A model generated the notes under the pieces. It was not told the origin of the DNA and ran no database searches. It worked only from the letters and a program-made list of their open reading frames with translations. 18,342 bases of DNA from Candidatus Hydrogenedentes bacterium CG07_land_8_20_14_0_80_42_17. GTDB taxonomy: Bacteria; UBA8481. Positions 1 through 17,157 of the stretch are shown here, one piece after another. The position numbers were made by a program, and so were the translations under genes. The stretch lies in the NCBI GenBank assembly GCA_002780065.1, contig PEWQ01000063.1, positions 1 to 18,342 on the forward strand. The letters are read 5' to 3'. How positions within the stretch are numbered: the first letter of the stretch is position 1; the number at the start of each line of letters is the position of its first letter.

Positions 1-1
1 G

Positions 2-1345
2 CAATTAATCGAAGCCGGAAAAAAATTCGGAGGCTTGACTGCGTATTTGACTCGCTGTGCGGACTCTTCCAGTGGAGAAGAAATTGCGCGCCGCGCCGGC
101 GCCGGCCGAATATTAAAAGAGAGCGACGGAGTTAAAGCCGATGACGCTGTGAAAAATGCATCCGCAGTTGTGTTTCCCAACTGCACGATTACGATAGCGG
201 CAAAGATTGGGTTACTGATTTCAGATGACAACGCCTCTTCTATTGGAGTAAGAGCTTTAGTCAAGAGAGTCCCTGTTGTAATTGCATCGAATTCGCTTAT
301 GACAAGTCTTTCAAGGGGTGGTTACGTTCCGCCGGAATTTCAGAGTGTCGGGACTGAACATATAGAGCGGCTTCGAAGAGTAGGAGTGACAGTTTGCGAT
401 ATCAGAGAACTTGCATCAAAAATTTCAACAAGTGGATTGAAAAATGAATTACATTTTGCCGATAAGACTCCGCAAATGCCGTCGTCAATTGCGCCGTCCG
501 TTGCGATAGAATGTTCTCCACTTTTAAATCAGGCTGTGGATTTTGTTCGGAATTCATTAGCCGATGATCCTTCATGTATTCCATGCGCGGCTAAAGTTAA
601 TCTTGCGATTGAAAAGTGCATCGAAGCAGGAGCATGCAGAGTTGGTTCAATCGGCGTTGCCGAAAATTCGATGCAGGGAAACAGCGTTGCTCGAATGATT
701 GATCATACTCTGCTGAAAGCAAACGCTACGCCTGAAGATGTAGAAAAAATTTGCAAAGAGGCGCGGAAATACAAATTCAAATCAGTATGCGTGAATTCCG
801 GTTATGCTTCTCTTGTGAAAAGACTTCTTCGCGGCTCAGGCGTGCTTACTTGCGTTGTTGTCGGGTTTCCGCTTGGCGCAATGACCACTGCATCGAAAGC
901 GGCGGAGGCACGCGACGCCGTTGCCGACGGAGCCGACGAAATCGATATGGTGATTAATATTGGAGCGCTGAAGGCCGGAGATTTTGACAAGGTCAAGCAT
1001 GATATTGAGGCTGTAGTCGAAGCCGCAAAAGGCAGAACAGTGAAGGTTATTCTCGAGACGCATCTTCTTACCGATGAAGAGAAGGTTGCGGCTTGTCAGC
1101 TCGCCGTAATGGCCGGAACTTCCTTTGTCAAGACCTCGACCGGATTTGGCGGCGGCGGCGCAACTGCGGAAGACATTGCGCTGATGCGCAGAGTTGTCGG
1201 ACCTGCTATTGGAGTCAAAGCATCGGGCGGAGTTAGAACCAGAGAAGATGCGGAAAAGATGATTAAGGCTGGAGCAAGCCGAATAGGAGCCTCTGCATCG
1301 ATCGCGATCGTCACCGGAAAAAAGCAAGAATCGAAAGGTTACTGA
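2..1345 (+). CDS. deoC: Flavoprotein domain fused to deoxyribose-phosphate aldolase (5' end outside window)
   Basis: The C-terminal half is a complete DERA, which cleaves 2-deoxyribose-5-phosphate to glyceraldehyde-3-phosphate and acetaldehyde. It starts near position 686 with [14 protein letters not shown]. It has EIDMVIN (catalytic-type Asp, about 944), FVKTSTGFG with the Schiff-base Lys at 1130-1132, and VKASGGVRT with the second active-site Lys. The N-terminal part (2 to about 430) looks like a Dfp/PPC-decarboxylase-type flavoprotein: an LTR-type strand, then [20 protein letters not shown], then a [13 protein letters not shown]...IRELASKI end. This pattern is typical of flavoproteins in BMC loci. 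A cysteine-containing linker joins the two parts. The reading frame is open to the left edge, so the in-frame TTG at 35 is internal and not a start. It ends one base before deoB, so the two are co-transcribed. The DERA call is very secure; the flavoprotein call is good but based on pattern memory. Confidence 0.93.
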
Positions 1346-1346
1346 T

Positions 1347-2519
1347 ATGAATTACAAACGCGTAGTTTTAATTGTGCTTGATTCTCTTGGAATCGGAGAG
1401 ATGCCGGACGCGGCGGAATACGGTGATGTAGGATCGAATACGCTTGGAAATATGGCGAGAGCTATGGGCGGATTAAAACTTCCCAATCTCGGGAAGTGGG
1501 GACTTGGCTGTTTGACAGATGTTATGGGAGTTCCACCGGTCTCTATTCCTGATGCTGTTATTGCCCGCGCCGCGCTTGCCGCTCCGAATAAGGATACGAC
1601 TTCCGGGCATTGGGAGATGATGGGAGTAATATTAAAGGTTCGCTTGAATACGTATCCTAACGGGTTCCCTGATGAGCTCATTGAACTTTTTAAAAAGGAA
1701 GCGAACGTTGACGGAGTTCTTGCAAACAAAGCGGCGTCAGGCACGGAAGTAATCGCCGAATACGGAGACGAACATCTCAGAACCGGCTTTCCGATTGTTT
1801 ACACGAGTGCCGACTCTGTCTTTCAAATTGCGTGTCATGAAGAAAAGTTTGGGCTTGAACGGCTTTACAAAATATGTGATGTTGCGCGAAAAATTTGCAG
1901 AGGTAAATTTGAAATCGGCCGTATAATTGCGAGACCTTTCATCGGCTCGAATGGAAAATATCAGCGAACTACAAATCGTCACGATTATTCGCTGGAACCT
2001 CCTGAGCCTACAGTGCTCGAAAATTTGTGCGAAAAGAATATTCCAGTGCTGGGCATTGGAAAAATTTACGATATTTTTGCGGGCATAGGTGTTCCTGAAA
2101 ATTGGAAGACGAAGAACAATGAAGATGGAATTGCGAAAACTGTTGAAGCTATCGAGAAAAAAAAGGAAGGTTTGATATTCACGAACCTTGTTGATTTCGA
2201 TATGGTTTTCGGTCATCGCAATAATACTCCCGGTTATGCAAATGCGATGGAAGAGTTTGATCTCGCTATTCCTCGAATAATTGAAGGGCTTGTTGACGGA
2301 GATCTTTTGATAATTACCGCTGATCATGGAAACGATCCGACTACTCCAAGCACTGACCATTGCCGAGAATTTTGTCCTGTTATCGCATGGAGCAAAGGAA
2401 TTAAGGGAAAAAATCTTGGAACATTTAGTTCGCTTGCTGATATCGGAGCTACTATTGCCGAGAATTTCGGAGTCACTTCAATCGGAGGAAAATCATTTTT
2501 GAGAGAATGTCGAAGATGA
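1347..2519 (+). CDS. deoB: Phosphopentomutase
   Basis: Interconverts (deoxy)ribose-1-phosphate and (deoxy)ribose-5-phosphate and so feeds the aldolase encoded just upstream. It belongs to the alkaline-phosphatase-like metalloenzymes and is cytoplasmic. Visible motifs are DSLGIGEMPDA with metal ligand Asp12, KDTTSGHWEM with the phosphorylated Thr at 84/85, TNRHDYSLEPP, GKIYDIFAGIG, NLVDFDMVFGHR, ITADHGNDPT and TDHCRE, which together give the two-Mn site. At 390 residues it is the usual family length, with cap and core both present. The ATG lies one base after the deoC stop, in a clear deoC-deoB operon. The end of the gene (ATGA, 2516-2519) overlaps a possible tiny reading frame leading to the phosphatase. 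Confidence is very high. Confidence 0.97.
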   Translation: MNYKRVVLIVLDSLGIGEMPDAAEYGDVGSNTLGNMARAMGGLKLPNLGKWGLGCLTDVMGVPPVSIPDAVIARAALAAPNKDTTSGHWEMMGVILKVRLNTYPNGFPDELIELFKKEANVDGVLANKAASGTEVIAEYGDEHLRTGFPIVYTSADSVFQIACHEEKFGLERLYKICDVARKICRGKFEIGRIIARPFIGSNGKYQRTTNRHDYSLEPPEPTVLENLCEKNIPVLGIGKIYDIFAGIGVPENWKTKNNEDGIAKTVEAIEKKKEGLIFTNLVDFDMVFGHRNNTPGYANAMEEFDLAIPRIIEGLVDGDLLIITADHGNDPTTPSTDHCREFCPVIAWSKGIKGKNLGTFSSLADIGATIAENFGVTSIGGKSFLRECRR

Positions 2520-2560
2520 GGGAAATCCCAATCACGCGCCGCGCATCACGGTATTATTGA
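2516..2560 (+). CDS. Possible 14-codon coupling ORF between deoB and the PP2C gene
   Basis: An ATG at 2516 overlaps the deoB stop in an ATGA arrangement. The frame encodes 14 residues (MREIPITRRASRYY) and ends with a TGA at 2558-2560 that overlaps the phosphatase ATG (TGATG). It fills the gap between deoB and the phosphatase exactly, and no Shine-Dalgarno is visible close to the phosphatase start. A role in carrying terminating ribosomes to the next gene is an inference. A chance open frame of this length is quite possible. Confidence 0.3.
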   Translation: MREIPITRRASRYY

Positions 2561-3345
2561 TGGCGATTAAACCTAAAATCGATTTAGCTTTTGCTTGTGA
2601 TACCGGATGCGTTAGAACAAATAATGAAGACTCTTTCAAATATCTCGATGAAGGAAATGACTTTTGGGCGTGTGTAGCTGACGGCTGCGGCGGTGAAGCG
2701 GCAGGTGAAATAGCTTCTCGAATTTCTGTTGATGTATTTGCGGAAGAAGTTTCAAAGAATAGGAATTCCGGCAGAGATATTTCTTTTGTTCTTCGTGATG
2801 CAGTTGTGAAGGCAAACAAAACTATTCTCGAGGCTTCTCTTGAAGAAGGAAGAGAAGGAATGGGAACAACCTTTTCTTCAATTTATATTAGAGGCAGAAA
2901 CGCAGTTATTGCTCATGCCGGCGATTCCAGAATTTACAGGAAACGTGAAGGTAAATTCGAACAGCTCACTGACGATCATACTTGGGTTGAAGCTCAAGTG
3001 AGAGCAGGAAAAATTTCTAAAAGTGATGCTGAGAATCATCCGAATTCAGGATTGCTGATGAGAGCATTAGGAATGCCGGATTTTAAAGCTCCGGATATAA
3101 GCTTCATCGATTGCGTGGAAGGCGATGCTTTTCTTCTCTCGACAGATGGGCTTCACAGAGTATTAACTATGAGCGATATTTCTAATTATATGGATATGGA
3201 GCCGGCAAAAGCTGTTAGCGAAATGATTGCGCTTAGTCTTAAGCGCGGCGCACCGGACAACGTGACGATCATATTTTTTAAAATATTAAAGTTTGAGCGA
3301 ATAGAAGAACAAACTTTATTCGAATTAGAGGGACACAATACCTAA
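2560..3345 (+). CDS. PP2C-family serine/threonine protein phosphatase
   Basis: A soluble metal-dependent (PPM) phosphatase that would remove phosphate from Ser/Thr of proteins. The motifs run in canonical order: DTGCVRTNNEDS near the N-terminus, VADGCGGEAAGE (metal-binding Asp), GTTF, HAGDSRIYR, the HPNSGLLMRALG stretch, LLSTDGLHRVL and GAPDNVTIIF with the late metal-binding Asp. The length of 261 residues is typical of stand-alone bacterial Stp/PrpC enzymes, with no extra sensor domain or membrane segment. ATG at 2560 is preferred; a TTG directly before it at 2557 is possible. No Hanks-type kinase gene is visible in the window, so the partner is unknown. It is probably co-transcribed with deoC-deoB, though a functional link is not evident. 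Confidence 0.94.
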   Translation: MAIKPKIDLAFACDTGCVRTNNEDSFKYLDEGNDFWACVADGCGGEAAGEIASRISVDVFAEEVSKNRNSGRDISFVLRDAVVKANKTILEASLEEGREGMGTTFSSIYIRGRNAVIAHAGDSRIYRKREGKFEQLTDDHTWVEAQVRAGKISKSDAENHPNSGLLMRALGMPDFKAPDISFIDCVEGDAFLLSTDGLHRVLTMSDISNYMDMEPAKAVSEMIALSLKRGAPDNVTIIFFKILKFERIEEQTLFELEGHNT

Positions 3346-3423
3346 TTCCAACTGAACCCGCTCATCCTCATTCAGAATTCATTCTTTAACGTTAACTGAG
3401 ATCTGCAGTTGCTTTTTCACCTT

Positions 3424-3452
3424 TTGACCTTCTTACAATATTGTGGTAAAAC
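3424..3452 (+). promoter_or_regulatory. Probable sigma-70-type promoter of leuS
   Basis: TTGACC at 3424-3429 and TAAAAC at 3447-3452 are separated by 17 bases. The -35 matches the consensus in five of six positions and the -10 in four of six. Transcription would start near 3459, upstream of the leuS ribosome site (AAAGGA, about 3472-3477). It supports ATG 3485 rather than the in-frame GTG at 3443, which lies inside the spacer. Confidence 0.45.
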
Positions 3453-3484
3453 GTATTGGAATTGATTTTAGAAAGGAAATAGAA

Positions 3485-6013
3485 ATGTCATCAAAATACG
3501 AACCTCAAAAGATTGAACTCGAAATTCAGAAATTGTGGTCGGACAGCAAAGTTTTTGAACGCGCTTCATCGGATAAAACAAAAAAAAGTTTTTATTGCCT
3601 CGAGATGTTCCCGTATCCGTCAGGAAAACTTCACATGGGACATGTCAGGAACTACACGATAGGAGACGCAGTTGCAAGATTTCAGCGGATGCATGGCAGG
3701 CATGTAATCTATCCAATGGGATTCGATTCGTTTGGCCTTCCGGCGGAGAATGCGGCAATACAAGGAAAGGCTCATCCCAAAAAATGGACATTTGCTCGCA
3801 TCGACGAAATGATTTTTCAGATGAAACGGATGGGCTTCTCTTACGATTGGAATAGGAATCTTGCAACATGCACTCCAGAATATTATCGCTGGAACCAGTG
3901 GTTCTTTCTAAAATTTATGGAGCAAGGATTGGCTTACAGAAAAGGAGCTCCAGTTAATTGGTGTCCAAAATGCAATACCGTTCTTGCAAACGAACAGGTT
4001 CATGACGGAAGATGCTGGCGGCATGAAGATACGCCTGTTGAACAGAAGACGCTCGAACAATGGTTTCTAAAGACGACGGCTTATGCTGAACGGCTTATCA
4101 AAAATTTAGATAAGCTCGAAGGCTGGCCTGAAAACGTGAAGGAGATGCAGAGGCATTGGATTGGCAGGTCTCAAGGCTCAATACTGAGATTTCCTGTTGA
4201 GAACAATTCCACGGTTATTGAAACCTTCACAACGCGCCCTGACACTGTTTATGGAATAACTTATCTTGTGCTTGCGCCCGAGCATCCGCTGGTCGACAAA
4301 CTGGTTGATGAGGAACGAAAAAATGGGCTGGAGGAATTCAGGCGTGAAGTATATTCAAGAACATCAGAAGAGAGAACTGACGAGTCGAGACCTAAAAACG
4401 GTTATGCGTTGGGAAGAAATTTTATCAATCCATTTACAGGTAAAACTCATCCGATTTACGTTGCGGATTATGTGCTCATGGATTACGGAACCGGAGCTGT
4501 AATGGCGGTTCCTGCTCACGACCAGCGCGACTTTGAATTTGCAAGGCGGCATGGGCTCCCAATAAAACCTGTGATTCATCCCCGAGATTTAATTCTTTCT
4601 GTGGATACGATGACGACTGCGTATGTCGAAGATGGAATAATGAGGGACTCAGGAAGATTCGATAATTTGCCCAATCGCGATTCTTCCGAAAATGATGCTT
4701 GGCATGGCATAGTGCAGTTGGCAAAAGAAAATGGTTGGGGTGATTTTCATATTCAATATCGATTGCGCGACTGGCTGATTTCACGCCAAAGATATTGGGG
4801 GACTCCTATTCCTGTCGTTTATTGCGATTCGTGCGGGATTGTTCCTGCAAAAGAGTTGCCTGTAATACTGCCTGATGACGTGCGATTCGATGTTGGCGGC
4901 AATCCGCTGGCGTCCTCGGAAAAATTTGTGAATACTCTGTGTCCTTCATGCGGCAAGCCGGCTAAGAGAGAAACAGATACTATGGACACGTTTGTAGATT
5001 CCTCGTGGTATTTTATGAGATACTGCGACAACAAAAATTCGAACGCGCCGTTTGATCCTGAAAAAGTGCGGAGCTCGATGCCGGTCGACCAATACATCGG
5101 CGGAGTCGAACATGCATGCATGCATCTGATTTACGCGAGGTTCTTCACCATGGTTCTTCACGATATGGGACTAATCGAATGCGAAGAGCCTTTTACGAAT
5201 CTTCTTACTCAAGGAATGGTCTGCCTCGAGACATATCGCTGTCCAAAGGATGATTGGATTCTTCCTTCCGAATGCTCTGATGGAAAATGCGTGAAGTGCG
5301 GGAGCAAAGTCACAATTGGTGCGATCGAGAAGATGTCAAAGTCAAAGAAGAATACTGTTGATCCTGGAGAAATAATTAATAAGTACGGCGCCGATACTGC
5401 AAGAACATTTATCCTATTCGCGTCGCCGCCGGAAAAAGAACTCCTCTGGTCGGACCAAGCTGTTGAAGGCTCATACAGATTTTTGCGCAGAGTTCATGAC
5501 CTGGTCGAAGAAAAAATTTCTTCGAGAGTTGAGCCTCCTAATTCATTGGACAAAGATTTACTTCGAAAAACTCACGAGACAATTTTGAAAGTTACGAAGG
5601 ACATATCTGAAAAGTTTCAGTTCAATACTGCTATTGCGGCTCTGATGGAGCTTTTGAACTCGATTCAAGAGCACGGGAAAAATACTGCGGTTTCTATCGA
5701 GGCGGTCGAAATGCTTTTGAGATGCCTTGCGCCTATTGCTCCGCATTTGGCTGAGCATGCGTGGAAGAGGCTCGGCAAGAACGGATTGCTTGCAGAAGCG
5801 GCTTGGCCTGAATACGATGCAAAAGCGCTGATTGTAGATACTGTCGAAATTCCCGTTCAAATCAACGGCAAGTTGAGAGGAACTATTTCAGTTTCACCAT
5901 CTGCATCCGAAGCCGAGGTATTGTCTGCCGCGGCTAAAGCTGTGAAGCAGGATATCTCAAAGCCGAAGAAGGTCATCTACAAACAGGGAAAGATTTTGAA
6001 TCTGGTCGTGTGA
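3485..6013 (+). CDS. leuS: Leucyl-tRNA synthetase
   Basis: Class Ia synthetase that charges tRNA-Leu; essential and cytoplasmic. Present are FPYPSGKLHMGHVRN with the HIGH motif at residues 50-53, the zinc-type insert NWCPKCNTVLANEQV...GRCWRHED, the editing domain with TTRPDT (249-254) and GTGAVMAVPAHDQRD, then RDWLISRQRYWGTPIP, a second CPSC pair, TFVDSSWYFMRYCD, a further Cys-rich leucine-specific insert (YRCPKDDW...CVKCGS), KMSKS at 616-620, the anticodon-binding helices and a C-terminal domain. At 842 residues it is full length with an intact editing site. ATG 3485 is chosen because it follows AAAGGA at good spacing and lies downstream of the promoter; the longer frame from GTG 3443 adds 14 residues that are not family-like. 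Its stop overlaps the next gene. Confidence 0.98.
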   Translation: MSSKYEPQKIELEIQKLWSDSKVFERASSDKTKKSFYCLEMFPYPSGKLHMGHVRNYTIGDAVARFQRMHGRHVIYPMGFDSFGLPAENAAIQGKAHPKKWTFARIDEMIFQMKRMGFSYDWNRNLATCTPEYYRWNQWFFLKFMEQGLAYRKGAPVNWCPKCNTVLANEQVHDGRCWRHEDTPVEQKTLEQWFLKTTAYAERLIKNLDKLEGWPENVKEMQRHWIGRSQGSILRFPVENNSTVIETFTTRPDTVYGITYLVLAPEHPLVDKLVDEERKNGLEEFRREVYSRTSEERTDESRPKNGYALGRNFINPFTGKTHPIYVADYVLMDYGTGAVMAVPAHDQRDFEFARRHGLPIKPVIHPRDLILSVDTMTTAYVEDGIMRDSGRFDNLPNRDSSENDAWHGIVQLAKENGWGDFHIQYRLRDWLISRQRYWGTPIPVVYCDSCGIVPAKELPVILPDDVRFDVGGNPLASSEKFVNTLCPSCGKPAKRETDTMDTFVDSSWYFMRYCDNKNSNAPFDPEKVRSSMPVDQYIGGVEHACMHLIYARFFTMVLHDMGLIECEEPFTNLLTQGMVCLETYRCPKDDWILPSECSDGKCVKCGSKVTIGAIEKMSKSKKNTVDPGEIINKYGADTARTFILFASPPEKELLWSDQAVEGSYRFLRRVHDLVEEKISSRVEPPNSLDKDLLRKTHETILKVTKDISEKFQFNTAIAALMELLNSIQEHGKNTAVSIEAVEMLLRCLAPIAPHLAEHAWKRLGKNGLLAEAAWPEYDAKALIVDTVEIPVQINGKLRGTISVSPSASEAEVLSAAAKAVKQDISKPKKVIYKQGKILNLVV

Positions 6014-7074
6014 AGATGATAAAAACTTTTATAATTGCGCCTACAGTTTTTTTTCTTGCTTTAGTTTTATCAGTTCCTGTTCGAGCTGAATTCGTTAGAG
6101 GAATTTTTACTACCGGAGCTGAGACATTCGACACGATAAGCGCTATGGGGTTCAATCTTGCAATATGCAGGACCGAGACTGCGGAATTGGAATCAGCAAA
6201 GCGATTGGGGCTAAAATTGATTCCGCAGTGGTTTGGAGATGACACAAAAAGTTTTGAAAGAATAGCAGAATTCGGTGATGACTCCAGGATTGCGGCATGG
6301 TTCCCTTTTGATGAGCCAGACATTTATCATATTTCTCAGGAAATAGTTGAAGGCAAAATAACTCGATTGCGCAAATATTCAAATAAACCTGTTTTTCTGA
6401 CTGTATTTACACCTTCGAGATATGCTGATTTTTTTCCGTATGCTGACTTTTGCGGAATCACTCCGTACCCGATAGGTTCGAATCCGAATGAAATAAGAAT
6501 GGAAGTTGTAGGTCAATTCAGTAAAATTGCCAGAGTTGTCAGCGGGGCAAAACCTCTTTATATTTTCGTCCCCGTTTTTTTTCAGAGACCATGGCAGTAT
6601 CGCGCTCCGACAGCATTGGAATTGCATAACATTGTCTATCAGGCTCTGACTTCAGCGCCTGACGGAATACTATTTTTTATCTGGAAAATTGGCGGGTTGG
6701 ATAACGTCATCTGGAATTTAACCGACCGACCGGATTTGATGAAAGAAATAGAAATTATCAATCATGAACTGATAACTCTGGATGGAGTTCTAACCGCTGG
6801 GACCGATGCTTCTTCGGAGATCACTTCAGCTTCCAACCCTCTTGTTTATTACAGGCTTGTCGAATTCGGAGGGGAATATTATTTATTCGTAGCGAATCCA
6901 ATGCCGCGTGAATTGCAATTTGAAATTGGATTTGATTTTGTCCCGGACGCCACAGAAATAATGTTTGGAAGCGGAGTCAAAATTCGCAATACTGATTCTC
7001 ATAACCGAATAGCTTTAACGATGAATAAATTTGGGCACAGTGTAATCAAAATTTGTAATAACAATCAAGAATAA
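6010..7074 (+). CDS. Secreted glycoside-hydrolase-like TIM-barrel protein
   Basis: No exact family recognised. Residues 1-26 form a signal peptide with a positive start, a hydrophobic core and a VRA/EF type I cleavage site, so the protein is probably exported. The body reads like a TIM barrel: GIFTTGAETFDTISAMGFN, then RLGLKLIPQWFG, WFPFDEPD (Glu102 in the place of a glycosidase acid/base), DFCGITPYPIG and FFIWKIGG. A beta-rich tail of about 80 residues follows (YYRLVEFGGEYYLFVANPM), as in the C-terminal beta-sandwich of many glycosidases. The GTG start at 6010 overlaps the leuS stop by four bases (GTGA); ATG 6016 is an alternative. No Shine-Dalgarno is obvious, so expression probably depends on coupling to leuS. 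Substrate and even enzymatic activity are unproven; a non-catalytic barrel is possible. Confidence 0.8.
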   Translation: MKMIKTFIIAPTVFFLALVLSVPVRAEFVRGIFTTGAETFDTISAMGFNLAICRTETAELESAKRLGLKLIPQWFGDDTKSFERIAEFGDDSRIAAWFPFDEPDIYHISQEIVEGKITRLRKYSNKPVFLTVFTPSRYADFFPYADFCGITPYPIGSNPNEIRMEVVGQFSKIARVVSGAKPLYIFVPVFFQRPWQYRAPTALELHNIVYQALTSAPDGILFFIWKIGGLDNVIWNLTDRPDLMKEIEIINHELITLDGVLTAGTDASSEITSASNPLVYYRLVEFGGEYYLFVANPMPRELQFEIGFDFVPDATEIMFGSGVKIRNTDSHNRIALTMNKFGHSVIKICNNNQE

Positions 7075-7313
7075 CGGCAAAAAAAAGAAATGCAGGCAAT
7101 TGCCTAAAGCTATTGATATTTTTTGGTAGCGTCTGTCAAGTTGCGCACTTTCGAAAAAATAACAATTTTTCTATGGCTAGTTTTTAGTATATTATTCATT
7201 TTTGTAATTTGTTTCGATTGGTAGAGTAATTTATTAATATTTTAGGATGTGGCAAGCAAGTATAAAACTGATTGCTTTGCTCAATAGATGTTTGTTCTCG
7301 GAGGATATTCATT
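7075..7313. other. AT-rich intergenic region upstream of the ATPase cassette
   Basis: 239 bases with no convincing coding potential. It holds a perfect 12-base palindrome AGGCAATTGCCT at 7094-7105 and a T-run at 7119-7124, too weak for a confident terminator call. It ends with the ATPase ribosome site GGAGG at 7300-7304. No unambiguous promoter could be chosen among the many AT-rich hexamers. Confidence 0.4.
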
Positions 7314-8438
7314 ATGCCGTCAGCATTAAATACCGTAACCATAAAAGGTTTTAAGTCGATCCGTTCATTAGAAAATTTTGAACAAGCCAATTTGAATGTG
7401 CTCATTGGCGGCAATGGCGCAGGCAAAAGCAACTTCATTGATTTTTTCCGATTGCTTCGGGCTATGCTAGAACTTCCTTTACATGGACTAGAACATGCCA
7501 GTCTAAGAGCTTATGTTGCGGATAATGATAGCAGGGACGGACTGCTTTTTAACGGCATTAAAGTAACCCCGCAAATTGAAGTGGAATTACATTTTGATCT
7601 TAATGGTTACCGGTTTAAACTTGCGCCTGATACTGGAGATTCATTTTTCATCAAAGATGAGGAACGTTTATTTATGGGTGGAACTGCCGGATGGTGGAAT
7701 CTGGGGAGCGGGCAAACAACACCTGAACTACTTAAAGACAAAGAAACTAATGGTTACACTGGAACGAAAAATGCTTCATTTTATGTATATCATGCTATTG
7801 AATCTTGGAAAATATACCATTTTCACGACTCGAGCAAACATGCTCCTATGCGTGGTTATGAAAAAATTGATGACTGTGATTACTTGCGATTCGAAGGCTC
7901 AAATATTGCTCCGTATTTATTTAAGCTGCGAGAGGAATATTCGGATGCATATAAACAGATTGTAGAAACGGTTCGATTAGTTACTCCATTCTTTGACGAT
8001 TTCATACTGAAGCCGAATAAAAAAGAAATGGTTCGTCTACGATGGCGCCAAAAAGGGTCAGATTATCCTCTAAACCCTTATCACTTATCTGATGGCACAA
8101 TTCGCTTCATCTGTCTTGCTACGGCATTATTACAGCCGGAACTACCATCATTGCTGATTCTTGATGAACCGGAACTCGGACTGCATCCGTATGCTATTTC
8201 TATTTTAGCCGAATTGATTCAGACTGCTGCAAAGAAAATCAAACTTATCGTTGCAACCCAGTCGGCAGAATTTGTGAATAATTTTCATCCCGAACATATC
8301 GTGGTGACCAATCGTCGAGATGGAGCATCGGTCTTTAGTCGCCTTAATACTGACGAATTGAGCCTCTGGTTAAAAGATTATTCATTAGGTGAACTCTGGA
8401 AAAAAAATATTATTAGCGGTGGTCCCGACTATGAGTGA
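7314..8438 (+). CDS. AAA/SMC-like ATPase (COG4637/AAA_21 type), defence-cassette ATPase
   Basis: A RecF/OLD-like ATPase. Residues near the start read TIKGFKSIRSLENFEQANLN, then the Walker A loop IGGNGAGKSNFIDF, a variable middle (about residues 45-235), the ABC signature-like HLSDGTIRFICLATAL, Walker B LILDEPELGLHP and the ATQSAEFVN switch. ATG 7314 sits nine bases after GGAGG; the longer frame from TTG 7272 has no ribosome site. At 374 residues it appears full length and undamaged. Its last 8 bases overlap the start of a DUF4276 gene. As known for this family, such ATPases are commonly paired with a DUF4276 or other TOPRIM-like nuclease partner in phage-defence or mobile loci. The function here is inferred from that pairing, and the partner is truncated. 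Confidence 0.88.
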   Translation: MPSALNTVTIKGFKSIRSLENFEQANLNVLIGGNGAGKSNFIDFFRLLRAMLELPLHGLEHASLRAYVADNDSRDGLLFNGIKVTPQIEVELHFDLNGYRFKLAPDTGDSFFIKDEERLFMGGTAGWWNLGSGQTTPELLKDKETNGYTGTKNASFYVYHAIESWKIYHFHDSSKHAPMRGYEKIDDCDYLRFEGSNIAPYLFKLREEYSDAYKQIVETVRLVTPFFDDFILKPNKKEMVRLRWRQKGSDYPLNPYHLSDGTIRFICLATALLQPELPSLLILDEPELGLHPYAISILAELIQTAAKKIKLIVATQSAEFVNNFHPEHIVVTNRRDGASVFSRLNTDELSLWLKDYSLGELWKKNIISGGPDYE

Positions 8439-8583
8439 CTTGAATATTTTTGTTATTGTCGAAGGTCAGACAGAACAAACATTTGTTCGAGAAGTTTTAG
8501 CACCGGAACTGGCGTCAAAAAACATATTCCTATATTCAGCATTAATCGGTAAACCTGGACATAAAGGTGGCAAATGGTTTTGA
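8431..8583 (+). pseudogene. Truncated DUF4276 (TOPRIM-like) partner of the ATPase
   Basis: The 50-residue product matches only the N-terminus of DUF4276 proteins: IFVIVEGQTEQTFVREVLAP, then IGKPGHKGG, then KWF and stop. VEGQTE fits the TOPRIM pattern with its catalytic-type Glu. As I recall them, family members are about 200 residues long, so roughly three quarters is missing. Skipping one base before the stop would read on as WFEKIT, similar to the family's next segment, so a frameshift may lie at 8578-8583. The cupin ribosome site begins only ten bases later, so the rest of the gene is deleted as well. The ATG overlaps the ATPase end (ATGAGTGA), the usual coupled layout. It is probably non-functional; a role for the short peptide cannot be excluded. 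Confidence 0.75.
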
Positions 8584-8603
8584 AAAAATTACGGAGGTAA
8601 ATC

Positions 8604-8948
8604 ATGACCGACAATTCTGGAAGTAAAGCCGCGTTGGATCCAGGAAAAGCATTTAAATTAAAAGAGCTTGTGCCGTATGCGGACGGAACGGTGATTAGCA
8701 GGACATTGAAGAAGGACCAATCCGGAACATTGACAGTTTTCGCATTTGCTGAAGGGGAGTCATTATCCGAACACAAAGCTCCATTTGATGCGTTCGTTCA
8801 AGTTCTTGATGGAGAAGGTGAGATCGTTGTTGATGGAAAACCTGTCGCAGTCACAGAAGGAGAGATTATTTTAATGCCGGCAAACATTACTCATGCGGTA
8901 AATGCTCGCAAGCCTTTCAAAATGCTCTTGATGATGATTCGCGGATAG
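8604..8948 (+). CDS. Small single-domain cupin protein
   Basis: A 114-residue cupin_2 beta-barrel. The two cupin motifs can be followed: AEGESLSEHKAPFDAFVQVLDGEGEI contains a G...H.H-like first motif with one His (SEHKAP) and Asp/Phe where a second His is often found, and GEIILMPANITHAV is the second motif with a conserved His. The metal site may therefore be incomplete. A strong ribosome site GGAGG (8593-8597) lies six bases before the ATG. The substrate is unknown; stand-alone proteins like this are often annotated only as cupin-domain proteins. It follows the broken DUF4276 directly, and the DNA join between them may be a deletion junction. Family call is secure, function is not. Confidence 0.9.
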   Translation: MTDNSGSKAALDPGKAFKLKELVPYADGTVISRTLKKDQSGTLTVFAFAEGESLSEHKAPFDAFVQVLDGEGEIVVDGKPVAVTEGEIILMPANITHAVNARKPFKMLLMMIRG

Positions 8949-8952
8949 TGGG

Positions 8953-8981
8953 TATAAAAAAAACTCTTCGTTTATTTTTTA
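8953..8981 (+). terminator. Weak AT-only hairpin after the cupin gene
   Basis: The arms 8953-8964 and 8970-8981 pair in 10 of 12 positions around a TCTTC loop, and the 3' arm is T-rich. The stem lacks GC pairs except one next to the loop, so this is only a possible intrinsic terminator. Confidence 0.25.
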
Positions 8982-9068
8982 CAAGCTTTATGATCAAAAT
9001 TGAAATTGATTTTTACTTGAGCTGTGAGAAAGTATTGATATCAGATTAAAAAAGGGGAGATTGCCATA

Positions 9069-9320
9069 ATGAACAGCAAATACACACCTCCTATTCCATC
9101 TTTTGAGCGGCGTGAAATAAGGTTAGTCACTATGCGCGTTCATGCGCGCATTACATTTATCAACGGGTTGGTATTGACCGGAACTGACAACCGTACTCGA
9201 TGACCAGATATGTGATGACAAAGAAGGAATATTGTATTTTGACGACATAATGTTTACTCAGTGAATGAACGGGGCGATTTGATTGCGAGAAGTGTTTTGG
9301 AGTGCTATATTAGTTTATGA
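9069..9320 (+). pseudogene. Remains of a small conserved gene broken by two frameshifts
   Basis: A good ribosome site (AGGGGAG, about 9053-9059) precedes an ATG at 9069 that opens a 44-codon frame (MNSKYTPPIPSFERREIRL...) ending at 9203. From about 9193 the next frame continues sensibly (VLDDQICDDKEGILYFDDIM) to a stop at 9262. From about 9258 the original frame resumes (SVNERGDLIARS...) to a TGA at 9318-9320. Joined, this gives one protein of about 83 residues with a pattern ITFINGLVLTGT...LYFDDI...GDLIARS, which recalls small DUF6812-like beta-rich proteins (low certainty). The final stop overlaps the HDOD gene start in an ATGA arrangement, the layout expected for a once intact coupled gene. 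The net frame change is zero. A sequencing or assembly error is the main alternative. Confidence 0.55.
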
Positions 9321-11014
9321 TGAATGAGTTGCAATCAAAAATGCTTGTTTGCTACATTGGCGAAGAGCGAAATATGGGAAGGCTTCTTGAGGAACGGCTG
9401 TCTGCTATTGGAGTTCAATTCATGCTTGTTGTTGATCCGGCTTCAGGTGTTAGAATTGCTCAGCAGTACAAACCAAAAGTTATTATAGTTGATGAGCGCG
9501 TCGGCAGATACGAGTCGATTAATGTCATTTCGACTATCAGAAGGATTCTTAGCAAGAATGAGACAGGAATTATCTGGCACGCAAGTGGAGTGACTGCTTC
9601 AAAAGTTATTGATGCTCATAAAGCTGGAGCCAATTCGATTCTTACTAGGCCAATGACAATGCCGTCATTGGTCTCACGCATTAATGAGTTATTCAAGCCT
9701 AGCCCCGGAATAAATTTTTCACGCGAAGATTCTCTCGAAAATAAAACTGCGGAAGATACGCAAAAAAAACTTTCTAAGGTTCAGAATTTGAACGCCGTTC
9801 CTTATGTAGTTGAAAAAGTTTTGAATATCACCGGCGATTCTGATTCCAGTGCGAAAGATTTAGAGCAGGTAATAGAAACTGATCCTAAGGTTTCTGCTGT
9901 AATACTGAAACGAGCAAATTCAGCCTTCTATACGTCTGTAAGGCAGATTGGGAGAATACTAGATGCGGTTGCCAGAATAGGTTTTAGAGAGGTTAGAGCT
10001 TTAATACTCGGCTTATCTGTTATTGATTTATTTCCCCGTGATCAGAAGACACTTTCGTTTGATAGGGTTCAGTTTTGGATCTCGTGTCTCTCTACAGCTG
10101 TGATAGCTCAGACACTGGCGGAAGTCGATAAGGAAATAGATCCTGACGATGCATTTATTGCAGGTTTGCTTCATGATTTAGGCAGGATGATTTTAGATGA
10201 ACATTTTCCGGACGAATTTTCTCGAGCTTTATCGATTTCTGAAAGATTTAGAATCTCTCTTTCAGATGCCGAAAAAAAGGTATTCGGAATGAATCATCAA
10301 GATATTGGAAAGATTGTTTTGGAAAATTGGAAATTTCCTAAAGAACTGCAATCTGTTGTGGGAAAACATGAAAATTTAGAAGAGATTAATAAGATTGAAG
10401 ATCCAAAGGAGCGTAAGCTTGCTCAGATCGTGTGGGCTGGAGAATGGATTACTCTTTTGCTTGGAGTGGGAACTTCAGGCGAACGACTGATTAATTATCC
10501 TATGCCTGATCAAATTTCCGGATTCAATTTTTGGCCTGCTGTGCTTGATAAAGAATTCGAAAATAAAGCTATGTTCAGACTGGATGATCTTCTTTCATTT
10601 ATTGGAGCAGATACATCGAGAACACCTAGAAAGCTTCAGGGAGAAACTGCTGTTTCTAAAGCCGTTGTTTACGAAGAATCCAATTTGCCTATGGGACCGC
10701 TTGCTTATCTCTTTGAAAACGCTCAATTCGAAGTTAAGAGGGCTGAGTCGATTAAAGATATCGGGCCGGTCGAACCCAATGTTATTGCAGCAATAGAATT
10801 CATATCTTTTGACTCGCTTCGAACGTCACTGCAATATTTGCCGGCCGGCCGCCAACCACTGCTCATTGTCGTTCCTAAAGGTGAATTGCCTTATGATGAC
10901 AAGGTTAAAGAACGCGCAGGGCTTCCGATTCAAAAGACGATTTATTTGGAAAAACCGTTTCACTGCAATGAATTAATGCAGGCAATTGAAAAATTGATGG
11001 ATTTTCTAAACTAA
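9317..11014 (+). CDS. REC-HDOD-REC signalling regulator
   Basis: A 565-residue cytoplasmic protein. Residues 8-126 are a response-regulator-like domain with VIIVDER (Asp59 as possible phosphoacceptor), but the usual Lys-Pro near the end is Arg-Pro (ILTRPM, 109-113). Residues about 150-365 form an HDOD domain (LNAVPYVVEKVLNIT, ETDPKVSAVILKRANSAFY, ARIGFREVRALIL) that keeps an HD pair, IAGLLHDLGR (His286-Asp287). HDOD domains usually act as signalling scaffolds and most are catalytically uncertain. The last 100 residues look like a second, degenerate receiver: YLEKPFHCNEL keeps the Lys-Pro but no clear acceptor Asp is seen. The ATG at 9317 overlaps the stop of the preceding pseudogene. It converges on a sensor histidine kinase gene with a 20-base gap. 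Confidence 0.9.
   Translation: MMNELQSKMLVCYIGEERNMGRLLEERLSAIGVQFMLVVDPASGVRIAQQYKPKVIIVDERVGRYESINVISTIRRILSKNETGIIWHASGVTASKVIDAHKAGANSILTRPMTMPSLVSRINELFKPSPGINFSREDSLENKTAEDTQKKLSKVQNLNAVPYVVEKVLNITGDSDSSAKDLEQVIETDPKVSAVILKRANSAFYTSVRQIGRILDAVARIGFREVRALILGLSVIDLFPRDQKTLSFDRVQFWISCLSTAVIAQTLAEVDKEIDPDDAFIAGLLHDLGRMILDEHFPDEFSRALSISERFRISLSDAEKKVFGMNHQDIGKIVLENWKFPKELQSVVGKHENLEEINKIEDPKERKLAQIVWAGEWITLLLGVGTSGERLINYPMPDQISGFNFWPAVLDKEFENKAMFRLDDLLSFIGADTSRTPRKLQGETAVSKAVVYEESNLPMGPLAYLFENAQFEVKRAESIKDIGPVEPNVIAAIEFISFDSLRTSLQYLPAGRQPLLIVVPKGELPYDDKVKERAGLPIQKTIYLEKPFHCNELMQAIEKLMDFLN
10840..10849. repeat. GC-only perfect palindrome inside the HDOD gene
   Basis: GCCGGCCGGC is self-complementary and stands out in AT-rich surroundings. 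It encodes part of LPAGRQ, a peptide that recurs at insertions of small palindromic repeats in proteins of several uncultivated bacteria. Only one copy was noticed in the window, so a repeat family is not shown. Confidence 0.4.
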
Positions 11015-11034
11015 CCAAAATAATTACTTCCTAA

Positions 11035-12723
11035 TCACTCTTCTTTTGCTAATGGCAGAATTATTCTGCACGTCGTTCCAAGCCCTTCCTCGCTTTCGAT
11101 CTCTATTTTGCCGCTATTCTCTTCAATTATCTTTTTGGCGATGGACAGCCCTAATCCCAGTCCGCCGTATTTTTGAGTTTTTGAATCGTCTGTTTTGTAG
11201 AATTTGTCGAATACTCGATTTAACTTCTCTTTGGGTATTCCAATTCCCCAGTCTTTGACAATAAGAAACGCTTTTTCAGAGTCTCTATTTGTAGTGATTT
11301 TTATTTTGGATTCGGGTTTTGAAAATTTTATCGCATTCCCGATTATTGGTATTATCGCTTGTATCATCGAAGAAAAATTTGCCGAGATGTAAATCGGTTC
11401 CGAGTAATGATCAATTTCAAATGAAATTTTGTTCCGCGAGGCTCTGGGAATCATCATGGATTCAGCTTCATTCGTGATTTCTCTAAGGTCTACCTTCTGC
11501 TTTGAAGTTATAATTCTTGATTCTGTACTGACTATTGAAAGAAGCTCATCGAATATATCGAGCAGACCGTTTCCGCCTTTAATACATGCTTTCAGCTTCT
11601 CTTTCTGTTTGTTGTTTACTTCTCCAAAAAGTCCGTTCAGCATCAATTCGCAATAACCTATTATTGTTACGATCGGAGTTCTGATTTCGTGCGAAACATT
11701 AGCCAGAAGAACGTCGCGAGTGCCAAGCGCAATATTGAGATTGCGGTTTACTTCATTTAGGTCGTCGGCCTTTTCTATAAGCAGTTTCTCTCGTTTGCGC
11801 ATCGAGTTGATCATCTCATTGAATGCAATTCTTACGGCTTTAAATTCTCCGTAACTTTTTGCCGGAACCGATTCTGGATAATCTCCTTTGGAAATTTTAT
11901 TGGCTAATTTTGAAAGAACATCAAGCTCACGTGTCATTATCGAAGTGAATAATGTGATTACAATAATAAAAATCGATATAGATATCGCAAATACTATTGC
12001 TGATTTTATCAGCATGTTAATAGTGTCGCGCCGAAAATCTTCGGCAAATTTAATATTCATTGCTTCAATATCGTCTATATACAAACTGGTTCCTACCACC
12101 CAATTCCATTCGGGTATGAGTTTGACAAAAGCAAGTTTTTTATACCCCTCTTCTGTTGTGGAACCGTTAGGCAAAGGCTTTGTCCAGTAGTAAGTGACAA
12201 AACCTTCTCCTTTTTCTTTGCATGCTTCATTCATCTCGACTAGAAACTTCTTTCCCATTCTTGAAATTATTTCAGTATCAAGCTCGATGATTTCTCCTTC
12301 CAATTTGATTTTATTTAGATTTTCTAAGTCCATAAATTCCTTTATGTTCTTTCCAACAACTTTGGGCGATGTCGGATGCATAACTATTTGAGGGATGGTA
12401 TCTGCCTCACTCGGAAATTCGTGAATCCAGAAATATCCTTTTCCTTCGTCGTATCGCATGGAAGAGAGTCTTTCTAGAAAACGTTTCTTCTGCTCGGCAG
12501 GAGTCAAGTCTGCTCGATTCATATATTGTTTTGCAAGAGATATAGCTGTGTTGCAGAGTGATTTTAAATTATTTTCACGTTCATTGTAAATATTTTCGGA
12601 AATGAGTTTTAGATTATTCTGGCTTTGAAGAGAAAAAAGGTAATTGTAAAAGCTACTTAAAAATAAAGTTGAGATTAGAACTAGTAAAGATGTGATTATT
12701 ATTATTCTGGTTCTGAACGACAT
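11035..12723 (-). CDS. Membrane sensor histidine kinase with extracellular Cache domain
   Basis: A 562-residue membrane kinase. TM1 is at about 7-30; a periplasmic/extracellular sCache-type domain spans about 35-235 (YDEGKGYFWIHE, IVMHPTSPKVVGKN, WNWVVGTSLYIDD are typical); TM2 is at about 238-262; a HAMP-like linker (ISKGDY...EFKAVRIAFNEM) runs to about 312, followed by a short coiled segment. The HisKA domain has NVSHEIRTP with the phosphoacceptor His345. The HATPase domain shows the N box (IIGNAIKFSKP, Asn463), DWGIGIP, FDKFYK and GGLGLGLSIAKKI. All catalytic boxes are present, so it should be active. Cache domains commonly bind small carboxylates or amino acids; the ligand is unknown here. 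The start lies 54 bases after the FecR gene. No classical response regulator is adjacent; the convergent REC-HDOD-REC protein is the nearest receiver. Confidence 0.95.
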   Translation of the reverse strand: MSFRTRIIIITSLLVLISTLFLSSFYNYLFSLQSQNNLKLISENIYNERENNLKSLCNTAISLAKQYMNRADLTPAEQKKRFLERLSSMRYDEGKGYFWIHEFPSEADTIPQIVMHPTSPKVVGKNIKEFMDLENLNKIKLEGEIIELDTEIISRMGKKFLVEMNEACKEKGEGFVTYYWTKPLPNGSTTEEGYKKLAFVKLIPEWNWVVGTSLYIDDIEAMNIKFAEDFRRDTINMLIKSAIVFAISISIFIIVITLFTSIMTRELDVLSKLANKISKGDYPESVPAKSYGEFKAVRIAFNEMINSMRKREKLLIEKADDLNEVNRNLNIALGTRDVLLANVSHEIRTPIVTIIGYCELMLNGLFGEVNNKQKEKLKACIKGGNGLLDIFDELLSIVSTESRIITSKQKVDLREITNEAESMMIPRASRNKISFEIDHYSEPIYISANFSSMIQAIIPIIGNAIKFSKPESKIKITTNRDSEKAFLIVKDWGIGIPKEKLNRVFDKFYKTDDSKTQKYGGLGLGLSIAKKIIEENSGKIEIESEEGLGTTCRIILPLAKEE

Positions 12724-12754
12724 AATATTTTAAATATTCACCCCGTTAAATTTT

Positions 12755-12784
12755 ATTGTATCACTAAGTCTCAACTTTCACCAA
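12755..12784 (-). promoter_or_regulatory. Possible promoter for the histidine kinase gene
   Basis: Read on the minus strand, TTGGTG (12784-12779) and TACAAT (12760-12755) are 18 bases apart, matching the consensus in four and five of six positions. It would start transcription in the gap after the FecR gene, giving the kinase some independent expression. Weak evidence. Confidence 0.25.
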
Positions 12785-13869
12785 GGAAGATGCCTCAATA
12801 GTCCGCCAACAGGTGTAGAAGTTATTCCAGAAGTAAGCTTTAGGAATCCGGAAAGTTTTTCCAGCGTATCCGCAAATTTTCCGATTGAATCTGCTTTGTT
12901 CGACCTTGCTGAATCGAATGCCGCGTATTCGCTGTCCGATGCTTCTGAACTGATCCCCCATCGCTCGGATAACGACCTCGTGACTTCTTTTCGAGCTTCC
13001 ATCGACTCTTTTCGTATCTCCATTCTCTGCCAGATCCTGAGCCCTTTTTCAATTGCGTCCGCAACATTTGCCGCATCGCTTGCTGTGCGCGGTGGATAAG
13101 CCGCAAGCCGAATTAGCTGACTTGCCATCGACGCCATTTCAACAAAGTCATTCAGCGACATCTTGTTAGTCTCTTTCATTGCTTCGGCAGAAAAAGATTC
13201 TATCTTCTGAGCTTTATTTGGATCTGAAACCTTGTGAGAATCGAACCACTCTTCTCCCTCTGTGTTTTGATCGATACTCTCTAGCATCCCCATTTCGGTT
13301 TCTTCATCTGCTCCAAGAGTAGTTGCAAATTCTTCTTTTCCCATCTCGACTTTGCCTTCAGCTACTTTTGTCTTTGAGGTGCAGTCTTCGCCGACCAATA
13401 CGTCGAATTCGGTTCCGCGAACGCCCGAAACGCTGGTAGGCGTGACTACTCTGTAGCTCGCTCTCTTCGCAAGCCTGTTAACCGAATGCGAGGTCTGTCC
13501 ACGATACACTGTAATGGATGTGCTGTTCAGTCGGCCTCTACTCCATCTGACTGTTGTTCGAGCAGGACCGAGCCGCACAACGTGTGAGTCAGGAAGCATC
13601 AGCGTGACTATTGAACCTTGCGGTACGTGGATGAGCGAGCCTGATGGAATTCGAGCTCGACTTCTAAGCGGAAGTGAAAGTCCCGAACTGTCAGGAATAA
13701 AATAAGGTGGAGCCTCATCTTCAGTTTGCGCCGATGTTTCTACTTTTATCGCAATCGCAGTATTTTCGTCTGCGCTTGCATTTGTTCCGAATGAAAGAAG
13801 GACGGAAATTAGCATCAAAATTAAGTAGAGCAGAAAATTAAAACGCATCTTCGATATGTTCGATTTCAT
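12778..13869 (-). CDS. Secreted FecR-domain protein
   Basis: 363 residues. A signal peptide occupies residues 1-33 with a likely cut after ASA, so the protein is exported; no lipobox Cys is present. Residues about 66-185 match the FecR fold: RSRARIPSGSLIHVPQGS, LPDSHVVRLGPARTTVRW and the diagnostic VVTPTSVSGVRGTEFDV. The C-terminal half (about 190-363) is acidic and helical without a recognised domain. ATG 13869 is chosen because GGAG lies eight bases upstream; the open frame extends 12 codons further without a ribosome site. It has no sigma factor or TonB receptor next to it, so it is not a FecIR system. Such stand-alone FecR-domain proteins are common in diderms and their role is unclear. 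The start overlaps yraN by 32 bases, and the kinase gene follows. Confidence 0.88.
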   Translation of the reverse strand: MKSNISKMRFNFLLYLILMLISVLLSFGTNASADENTAIAIKVETSAQTEDEAPPYFIPDSSGLSLPLRSRARIPSGSLIHVPQGSIVTLMLPDSHVVRLGPARTTVRWSRGRLNSTSITVYRGQTSHSVNRLAKRASYRVVTPTSVSGVRGTEFDVLVGEDCTSKTKVAEGKVEMGKEEFATTLGADEETEMGMLESIDQNTEGEEWFDSHKVSDPNKAQKIESFSAEAMKETNKMSLNDFVEMASMASQLIRLAAYPPRTASDAANVADAIEKGLRIWQRMEIRKESMEARKEVTRSLSERWGISSEASDSEYAAFDSARSNKADSIGKFADTLEKLSGFLKLTSGITSTPVGGLLRHLPW

Positions 13870-14185
13870 AATTATCTCCTTTTTTGAGAATGCCGATACA
13901 ATCAAATCTCAAATTCATTTTATCGAACTCACTGTGTTGTTGCGAATAAATACTTGCTAAATTTCGGATTTTGTTTTGCTTGGCTACTGTCACTGATTCC
14001 AGAGGAAATCCGCTCGAATCGCTGGTACGGGTCTTTACCTCGACAAAAACAAGTTCGTTCTTATCGAGCATAATAATATCGATCTCGCCGAATTTTTTCC
14101 TGCAGTTGCGTTCGATTATTTTGCAACCGCGTTTTTTAAGAAATTCTGCCGCAAGATCTTCACCCATTTTTCCAAGATGGTTCAA
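13838..14185 (-). CDS. yraN: YraN/UPF0102 family nuclease-fold protein
   Basis: A 115-residue protein of the UPF0102 family with a restriction-endonuclease-like core: LGKMGEDLAAEFLKKRG at the start, then FGEIDIIMLDKNELVFVEVKTR, which contains the E...D...ExK pattern, then PLESVTVAKQNKIRNLA and RFDCIGI. The function of the family is poorly known; the gene is often near ribosome or RNase HII genes, which is not the case here. The start chosen is the TTG at 14185, preceded by GGAG at eight bases and overlapping the upstream stop as TTGA. The frame is open further upstream to 14254, but that part would overlap the end of the glycosyltransferase and adds no family-like sequence. Length after this choice fits the family. 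Confidence 0.92.
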   Translation of the reverse strand: MNHLGKMGEDLAAEFLKKRGCKIIERNCRKKFGEIDIIMLDKNELVFVEVKTRTSDSSGFPLESVTVAKQNKIRNLASIYSQQHSEFDKMNLRFDCIGILKKGDNYEIEHIEDAF

Positions 14186-15801: not shown

Positions 15802-15854
15802 TTCTCTCGTAATAATTTAATATTGTTTGTAGAATAATATAAAAGGAGGTTTAT
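15802..15854. promoter_or_regulatory. Divergent intergenic region
   Basis: 53 bases between two divergent starts, strongly AT-rich. On the plus strand a TTGTTC (15794-15799) and TAATAT (15818-15823), 18 bases apart, are a weak promoter candidate. A strong ribosome site, GGAGG at 15845-15849, serves the plus-strand gene. Confidence 0.3.
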
Positions 15855-16403
15855 ATGAAGAAAGAAGTTGCAGAGGCAAATGCTACGAAGCTGATTTATA
15901 ATGGTCCGTGCGTTTTAGTGACGTGCCAGAGGAACGGCAGGCCTAATGTTTTTACCGTATCGTGGAATACTCCGGTTTCGATTGTGCCTCCTATAGTCGC
16001 AATAAGTTGTGTGAAGAGCAATTATTCGTGGGAGATAATTCGCGGGACAAAAGAGTTCACAATCAATGTTCCTGAAATGGATATAGTCGATGCGGTCTTC
16101 GGATGCGGAAAAGTTTCAGGCAGGGAAGTCGATAAGTTTTCGAGATTCGGGTTCGGTCTTGAATCGGGGAAAAAAGTTTCCGTGCCGTCGATAAAAGAAT
16201 GTCCTGGGCAGCTCGAATGCAAAGTGATTGCCGAGCCGCAATTCGGCGACTTTTCTCTATTTGTCGCAGAAGTGGTTTCCGCTTATGCTGAAGAGGAAAA
16301 ATTCGATACGAAATGGATATTAGAGAAAGCTAAAATTATTAATCATTTAGGCGACGAGGTCTTTTATTCCTTGGGAATAAAGCAGTCGGCGAAACTTATT
16401 TAG
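15855..16403 (+). CDS. Flavin-reductase-like FMN-binding split-barrel protein
   Basis: 182 residues of the flavin reductase-like domain family (PF01613 type). Typical stretches are PCVLVTCQRNGRPNVFTVSW, the PPIVAISCVKSNYSWEIIR core, EFTINVPEMDIVDAVFGCG, then SGREVDKFSRFGF and ECPGQLECKVI. These proteins bind FMN and act as NAD(P)H:flavin oxidoreductases or as redox partners; in anaerobes many have no assigned partner. There is no signal peptide or membrane segment. Ribosome site AAGGAGG lies just before the ATG. The next gene starts 23 bases after the stop with its own ribosome site, so the two probably form an operon although their functions seem unrelated. Confidence 0.92.
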   Translation: MKKEVAEANATKLIYNGPCVLVTCQRNGRPNVFTVSWNTPVSIVPPIVAISCVKSNYSWEIIRGTKEFTINVPEMDIVDAVFGCGKVSGREVDKFSRFGFGLESGKKVSVPSIKECPGQLECKVIAEPQFGDFSLFVAEVVSAYAEEEKFDTKWILEKAKIINHLGDEVFYSLGIKQSAKLI

Positions 16404-16426
16404 TTAATGAAATAAGGAGAGGATAA

Positions 16427-17149: not shown

Positions 17150-17157
17150 AAGGTTTA

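What the first reader, a model, noticed from the sequence alone, without database searches (positions are those of the whole stretch)
2..1345. Flavoprotein fused to deoxyribose-phosphate aldolase, a probable microcompartment enzyme
A Dfp-like flavoprotein domain with the pattern of BMC-locus flavoproteins is joined in one frame to a complete DERA and followed by deoB. Known sugar-phosphate-utilising BMC loci encode DERA and an RpiB-like isomerase, and DERA releases acetaldehyde, the sort of product a BMC contains. A fusion of these two domains is not one I recognise. It would physically tie flavin chemistry to aldol cleavage inside a shell.
Basis: partly seen in the sequence, partly recalled or inferred. 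Interest (0 to 1): 0.65.

Follow-up and report, generated by a model that had tools for sequence, protein, structure and literature searches.

The report
Flavoprotein–aldolase fusion of a bacterial microcompartment
The gene encodes an enzyme that cuts the DNA sugar deoxyribose-phosphate, joined to a flavoprotein-like domain and normally carrying a tag for loading into a protein-shelled bacterial organelle; the organelle is of a known type, but I found no published description of this version of its key enzyme.

Summary
Window 2-1345 is one open frame, cut at its 5' end by the contig edge, whose C-terminal half is a complete deoxyribose-phosphate aldolase (DERA) with its catalytic residues. The N-terminal half gives no Pfam match alone, but profile comparison places it with stand-alone microcompartment (BMC) flavoproteins (98.8%, E 6e-17). 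A same-order relative (Ca. Hydrogenedentota J006) has the full-length 510-aa protein, beginning with an encapsulation-peptide-like helix. The fusion recurs in eight genomes from five lineages among about 386 diverse genomes, plus three tag-less look-alikes. All eleven genomes encode BMC shell proteins, against 93 of 386 overall. In five relatives it sits beside shell genes, in two of them with a nucleoside transporter, RpiB and aldehyde dehydrogenase. The window's own genome carries BMC-H, BMC-T, three BMC-P, PduL, aldehyde dehydrogenase, PduS and a BMC-type RpiB on other contigs. It is therefore the signature aldolase of an SPU (sugar-phosphate-utilising) metabolosome, a known kind, in a form not described in the papers I could search. 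What the flavoprotein domain does is unresolved: the HFCD (CoaC/EpiD-type) decarboxylase residues are missing, so redox relay and structural roles both stand.

The parts
2..418 (+). flavoprotein-like (HFCD/UbiX-type, BMC flavoprotein family) domain, residues 1-139; its first ~54 residues, including the expected encapsulation peptide, lie beyond the contig edge
   Evidence: hhalign of A1 against stand-alone BMC flavoproteins 98.8%, E 5.9e-17; A4 profile matches residues 1-139 (A4 includes this sequence)
557..646 (+). cysteine-rich linker [30 protein letters not shown], residues 186-215; counterpart of the C..C(..C)...GAxRI element in front of other BMC-associated DERAs
686..1345 (+). complete class I deoxyribose-phosphate aldolase (DeoC/DERA), residues 229-447 plus stop; Schiff-base lysine at 1130-1132 in VKTSTGF
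   Evidence: TIGR00126 276.5 bits; PF01791; Foldseek to DERA structures
1347..2519 (+). deoB, phosphopentomutase, starts one base after the DERA stop
   Evidence: NF003766 525.9 bits, TIGR01696 466 bits; same neighbour in G001

Best explanation
This is the signature aldolase of an SPU-type bacterial microcompartment that degrades the sugar of DNA. Full-length order: encapsulation-peptide helix, flavoprotein-like domain, cysteine-rich linker, DERA. Proposed pathway: deoxynucleosides are phosphorolysed to deoxyribose-1-phosphate (inferred); DeoB, encoded next to it, makes deoxyribose-5-phosphate; [quoted passage not shown] a tagged CoA-acylating aldehyde dehydrogenase and PduL turn the trapped acetaldehyde into acetyl-CoA and acetyl-phosphate. 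The genes are shown; encapsulation and flux are inferred. The flavoprotein domain most likely keeps this otherwise separate BMC flavoprotein next to the aldolase; I lean slightly to a flavin redox role with the PduS-like oxidoreductase in recycling NAD+, but a structural role is almost as likely. The confidence given is for the SPU microcompartment aldolase reading, not for the role of the flavoprotein domain.
For: DERA and deoB profile scores. Flavoprotein homology. Full-length fusion in G001 = Ca. Hydrogenedentota J006 starting MNVDKMLVERITREVVRRLE, an N-terminus more amphipathic than all 80 control N-termini. Own genome: BMC-H, BMC-T, PduL, ALDH, PduS on C141; three BMC-P on C143; RpiB with a BMC-type C-terminal tail on C99. 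Relatives: G119, G133, G270 have BMC-P directly upstream of the fusion; G019 and G166 have fusion - nucleoside transporter - RpiB - ALDH - BMC-H in a row. Shell genes in all 11 genomes with the fusion or look-alike (background 93/386). Only one DERA was found in the window's genome. A secreted-type 5'-nucleotidase gene lies in the BMC gene cluster of both G000 and G001. G013, G161 and G300 carry the tagged flavoprotein and the tagged DERA as separate genes, so the fusion joins two proteins that already co-occur. SPU role of DeoC + RpiB: PMC4207490, PMC8217296.
Against: The window gene is not on the same contig as any shell gene. Its own encapsulation peptide is not seen because the 5' end is missing. 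The flavoprotein domain of the window protein has no direct Pfam match, lacks the HFCD catalytic His and PXMN motif, and has Thr where PASANT has Asn. The AlphaFold models are low confidence (pLDDT 48.8 and 45.3). No nucleoside phosphorylase was sought. Genome completeness is 86.9%.
Confidence: 0.85

Rival explanations
1. Same BMC aldolase, but the flavoprotein-like domain is structural: it oligomerises and helps nucleate the enzyme core or fixes the aldolase to other cargo, and does no flavin chemistry.
For: The HFCD His and PXMN motif are absent from every member and the PASANT Asn is lost in several fusions (window, G001, G133, G019, G166). The domain is the most divergent part of the protein (38% identity between G000 and G001, against 80% in DERA). 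Other BMC-associated DERAs have RpiB or nothing in its place. HFCD proteins form trimers, dodecamers or cages (own knowledge; DmrB cage entry).
Against: The fold is kept across several lineages and some fusions keep the PASANT Asn (G119, G270, G383). Stand-alone BMC flavoproteins are conserved near PduL/ALDH.
Confidence: 0.4
2. The flavoprotein domain is a working FMN redox module that helps regenerate NAD+ in the lumen with the PduS-like oxidoreductase, in a metabolosome that has no alcohol dehydrogenase in its locus.
For: PduS is encoded beside BMC-T in G000, G001, G119, G133, G270, G019, G166, G383 and G370. Axen 2014 notes that SPU loci lack alcohol dehydrogenase and suggests an electron-shuttle role for a BMC flavoprotein in GRM3. 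Low-confidence fold matches to UbiX, EpiD and DmrB.
Against: FMN binding is untested and some flavin-site motifs are degenerate in part of the fusions. Alcohol dehydrogenase elsewhere in the genome was not searched for.
Confidence: 0.45
3. An ordinary cytosolic DERA with an unrelated N-terminal extension; BMC genes in the genome are a coincidence.
For: The gene is on a different contig from the shell genes; deoB and DERA are neighbours in many non-BMC bacteria (own knowledge).
Against: Shell genes directly beside the fusion in five relatives; 11 of 11 genomes with shell genes; targeting-like helix in every full-length tagged fusion.
Confidence: 0.05
4. The domain is an active HFCD decarboxylase (CoaC/EpiD-like).
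For: Membership of the wider HFCD fold family.
Against: The catalytic His and the substrate-clamp PXMN motif are absent in the window protein, in all fusions and in all stand-alone BMC homologues aligned.
Confidence: 0.03

Closest known systems
SPU (sugar phosphate utilising) bacterial microcompartments (Axen 2014 PMC4207490; Sutter 2021 PMC8217296)
   Same: DeoC-type aldolase plus RpiB, aldehyde dehydrogenase, PduL, PduS, BMC-H/T/P; proposed DNA-sugar catabolism
   Different: the aldolase carries a flavoprotein-like domain between targeting helix and aldolase; genes are split over several loci in G000 and G001; not found by term searches of the main text of either paper
RpiB-DERA fusion aldolases of Marinimicrobia-type SPU loci (Axen 2014)
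   Same: signature aldolase with an extra N-terminal domain; five further examples seen here (G287, G149, G272, G026, G354)
   Different: partner domain is the isomerase, not the flavoprotein
HO-type BMCs (Haliangium ochraceum; Sutter 2021)
   Same: BMC-P triplet; DeoC with an EP-like N-terminal extension encoded away from the main locus in some genomes
   Different: HO loci are described as having an EP-like extension only; in the window genome RpiB with a BMC-type tail is present
Stand-alone BMC flavoproteins (PF02441-related) next to PduL in other BMC loci
   Same: same domain family with targeting helix
   Different: separate protein ending in an ITPLARD-type tail that is replaced by DERA here
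HFCD/UbiX flavoproteins (CoaC, EpiD, DmrB, UbiX)
   Same: remote homology and predicted fold
   Different: catalytic His and PXMN motif absent

Membership tests
deoxyribose-phosphate aldolase (DeoC, EC 4.1.2.4) | TIGR00126 equivalog score above cut-off | tested here: met
   276.5 bits against 117.3
deoxyribose-phosphate aldolase (DeoC, EC 4.1.2.4) | Schiff-base Lys (VKTSTGF), second Lys (GVKASGGVR), Asp (EIDMVIN) | tested here: met
   all present in P0001 and invariant in A3; residue roles from own knowledge of E. coli DERA
BMC flavoprotein family | profile similarity to stand-alone flavoproteins of BMC loci | tested here: met
   98.8%, E 5.9e-17 over 191 columns
Flavoprotein PF02441 / HFCD family | direct match of the window protein to PF02441 | tested here: not met
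   no match; met by fusion G383 above cut-off and by 7 of 9 A4 members
Flavoprotein PF02441 / HFCD family | catalytic His, PASANT and PXMNXXMW motifs | tested here: not met
   His and PXMN absent, PASANT Asn replaced by Thr
Flavoprotein PF02441 / HFCD family | binds FMN | not testable with these tools
   needs purified protein
SPU metabolosome | DeoC-type aldolase (PF01791) and RpiB (PF02502) encoded | tested here: met
   RpiB with BMC-type tail on C99
SPU metabolosome | shell proteins BMC-H, BMC-T, BMC-P | tested here: met
SPU metabolosome | CoA-acylating aldehyde dehydrogenase and PduL | tested here: met
   C141; CoA-acylating type inferred from context
SPU metabolosome | signature genes in one locus with shell genes | tested here: inconclusive
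   different contigs in G000; G001 has RpiB on the shell contig C86; one locus in G019 and G166
BMC cargo | encapsulation peptide on the aldolase | tested here: inconclusive
   window protein truncated; present in G001 and in the other tagged fusions

The most novel reading that the evidence does not exclude
The signature enzyme of a metabolosome is covalently tied to a flavin electron carrier, so that acetaldehyde production and cofactor recycling across the shell are coupled in one protein.
Probability: 0.25. Interest if true: 0.65.

Novelty: new variant of a known kind. Interest (0 to 1): 0.47.

Why it matters
SPU compartments are among the most widespread BMCs, yet the two papers read here assign their function from gene content alone. 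The fusion is a natural link between the DERA and the enigmatic BMC flavoprotein, whose role has been guessed at only as an electron shuttle. It gives a single protein on which the role of that flavoprotein can be tested, and it shows that the slot in front of the SPU aldolase is modular (nothing, RpiB or flavoprotein).

Tried and rejected
Viral contigs held no relative. The genome-contig scan with strict peptide patterns returned only J006, which understated the distribution; profile searches of whole genomes corrected this. The idea that the N-terminal domain is RpiB was rejected by alignment and by the separate RpiB genes. A single origin of the fusion was tested on a DERA tree: the fusions do not form one clade (AU p 0.0245), so several gains or losses are likely but weakly supported. 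Literature searches found no mention of a flavoprotein-DERA fusion; subscription papers and supplements were not available.

Full report
WHAT IS IN THE SEQUENCE. Window 2-1345 on the + strand is one open frame of 447 codons that runs off the left end of the contig. The C-terminal part, residues 229-447, is a complete deoxyribose-phosphate aldolase: TIGR00126 276.5 bits against a cut-off of 117, PF01791, with [16 protein letters not shown] and EIDMVIN intact. deoB starts one base after its stop codon. The first 227 residues give no Pfam match even at E 10. The window is bases 1-18342 of a 23.5-kb contig in a 2.39-Mb draft genome of 207 contigs, 86.9% complete. The gene is therefore truncated by about 54 residues, and nothing upstream can be read.

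A FULL-LENGTH RELATIVE. The only other held genome of the same order, G001, encodes a 510-aa protein with the same order of parts and deoB downstream. The genome-contig scan names it: Candidatus Hydrogenedentota bacterium isolate J006. It begins MNVDKMLVERITREVVRRLE, an amphipathic helix of the type used as encapsulation peptide, more amphipathic than all 80 control N-termini. The two proteins are 80% identical in DERA and 38% in the N-terminal region.

WHAT THE N-TERMINAL DOMAIN IS. A profile of the two N-terminal regions hits stand-alone 246-300 aa flavoproteins, several of them encoded beside PduL and aldehyde dehydrogenase in other bacteria. Profile-profile comparison with seven of these gives 98.8% probability, E 5.9e-17. 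Seven of nine members of the combined alignment match PF02441 singly, and its profile finds EpiD, CoaBC, DpaB and UbiX in the PDB (the combined profile includes the stand-alone proteins). A fusion from another lineage, G383, matches PF02441 at 36.9 bits (cut-off 22.7) and DeoC at 57.7 bits (cut-off 23.8) in one frame. The two-row AlphaFold models are poor, but the best balanced Foldseek matches of the isolated domain are again UbiX, DmrB and EpiD (weak). The HFCD catalytic His and PXMN motif are absent from all fusions and all stand-alone BMC members; PASANT Asn is kept in some fusions and is Thr in the window protein. A decarboxylase is therefore unlikely; FMN binding is open.

HOW COMMON IT IS. 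Profile and DERA searches over about 386 diverse genomes, followed by reading of the frames, gave eight fusions: G000 (the window), G001, G133, G270, G019, G166, G119 and G383, from five lineages. Three more, G370, G106 and G242, carry a similar-looking domain without a targeting helix (my reading of the alignment, no profile match). The fusion is not an assembly artefact. On a DERA tree the eight do not form one clade (AU p 0.0245), so repeated gain or loss is likely, but the deep branches are weak.

THE MICROCOMPARTMENT. The window genome encodes BMC-H, BMC-T, PduL, an aldehyde dehydrogenase with a tag-like N-terminus and a PduS-like protein on contig C141, three BMC-P on C143, and an RpiB with a BMC-type tail on C99. 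In G119 two BMC-P genes, and in G133 and G270 one BMC-P gene, lie directly upstream of the fusion. In G019 and G166 the order is fusion, CNT-type nucleoside transporter (named from its sequence), RpiB, aldehyde dehydrogenase, BMC-H. All 11 genomes with the fusion or look-alike have PF00936 shell genes, and all are among the 93 of 386 genomes with BMC-P. The expectation at that rate is about three of 11, although related genomes are not independent. DeoC plus RpiB defines the SPU type, proposed to break down DNA sugar. A 5'-nucleotidase gene in the BMC cluster of G000 and G001 and the nucleoside transporter fit that role.

ANATOMY IN COMPARISON. Other BMC-associated DERAs examined have a targeting helix and a short linker, often with C..C..C, ending in GAxRI just before the barrel; others have RpiB in front. 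By my reading of the listing, 32 of 45 DERAs from BMC-bearing genomes had the GAxRI-type motif and none of eight from genomes without BMC-P; the sample was chosen for similarity or length and is biased. The window protein keeps this linker (residues 186-215). The simplest reading is that the flavoprotein domain sits between targeting helix and linker of a standard SPU aldolase. In G013, G161 and G300 the flavoprotein and the tagged DERA are separate genes in one genome, which supports a shared workplace.

MECHANISM. Shown: gene content, domain order, adjacency in relatives. Inferred: DeoB feeds deoxyribose-5-phosphate to the encapsulated aldolase; acetaldehyde is converted in the lumen by aldehyde dehydrogenase and PduL. 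The role of the flavoprotein domain is not settled; redox relay with PduS (0.45) and a structural role (0.40) are close.

NOVELTY. The organelle type and the habit of fusing partners to its aldolase are known (PMC4207490, PMC8217296). I found no description of the flavoprotein fusion in the searchable open-access papers; supplements and UniProt were out of reach. I rate it a new variant of a known kind.

Noticed in passing
L168:7830-8705, L169:2802-3686, L167:7639-8505, L170:7344-8195, L171:8212-9090: Proteins of 283-294 aa with three BMC (PF00936) domains in one frame, in five genomes of two lineages. Shell proteins known to me have one or two; one paper search for 'three BMC domains' found nothing.
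   Followed up: partly
window 557-646; L152:8455-9330; L149:8012-9061: Cysteine-rich linker before BMC-associated DERAs; in G232 and G094 it reads CxxCxxCxxxCP, like a 4Fe-4S site, in others it is reduced.
   Followed up: partly
L026:3341-3826, L028:4594-5085: A 161/163-aa protein with a tag-like N-terminus and ITPxARDxA motifs resembling the E3-binding domain, in the BMC cluster of G000 and G001; the same tail ends BMC-type RpiB and stand-alone BMC flavoproteins.
   Followed up: no
L026:1760-3337, L028:2802-4529: A 5'-nucleotidase and a GGDEF protein follow the BMC genes in both G000 and G001.
   Followed up: no
L138:7334-8536, L133:7372-8679, L132:7216-8523: DERA with a flavoprotein-like N-terminal half but no targeting helix (400-435 aa), between RNase Y and enolase genes in G370, in genomes that also have BMC loci.
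   Followed up: partly
window 2557-18342: By sequence alone: a PP2C-like phosphatase (2557-3345), a leucyl-tRNA synthetase (3443-6013) and an rlmN-like radical SAM gene (17158-18066, - strand); no BMC gene was recognised.
   Followed up: no
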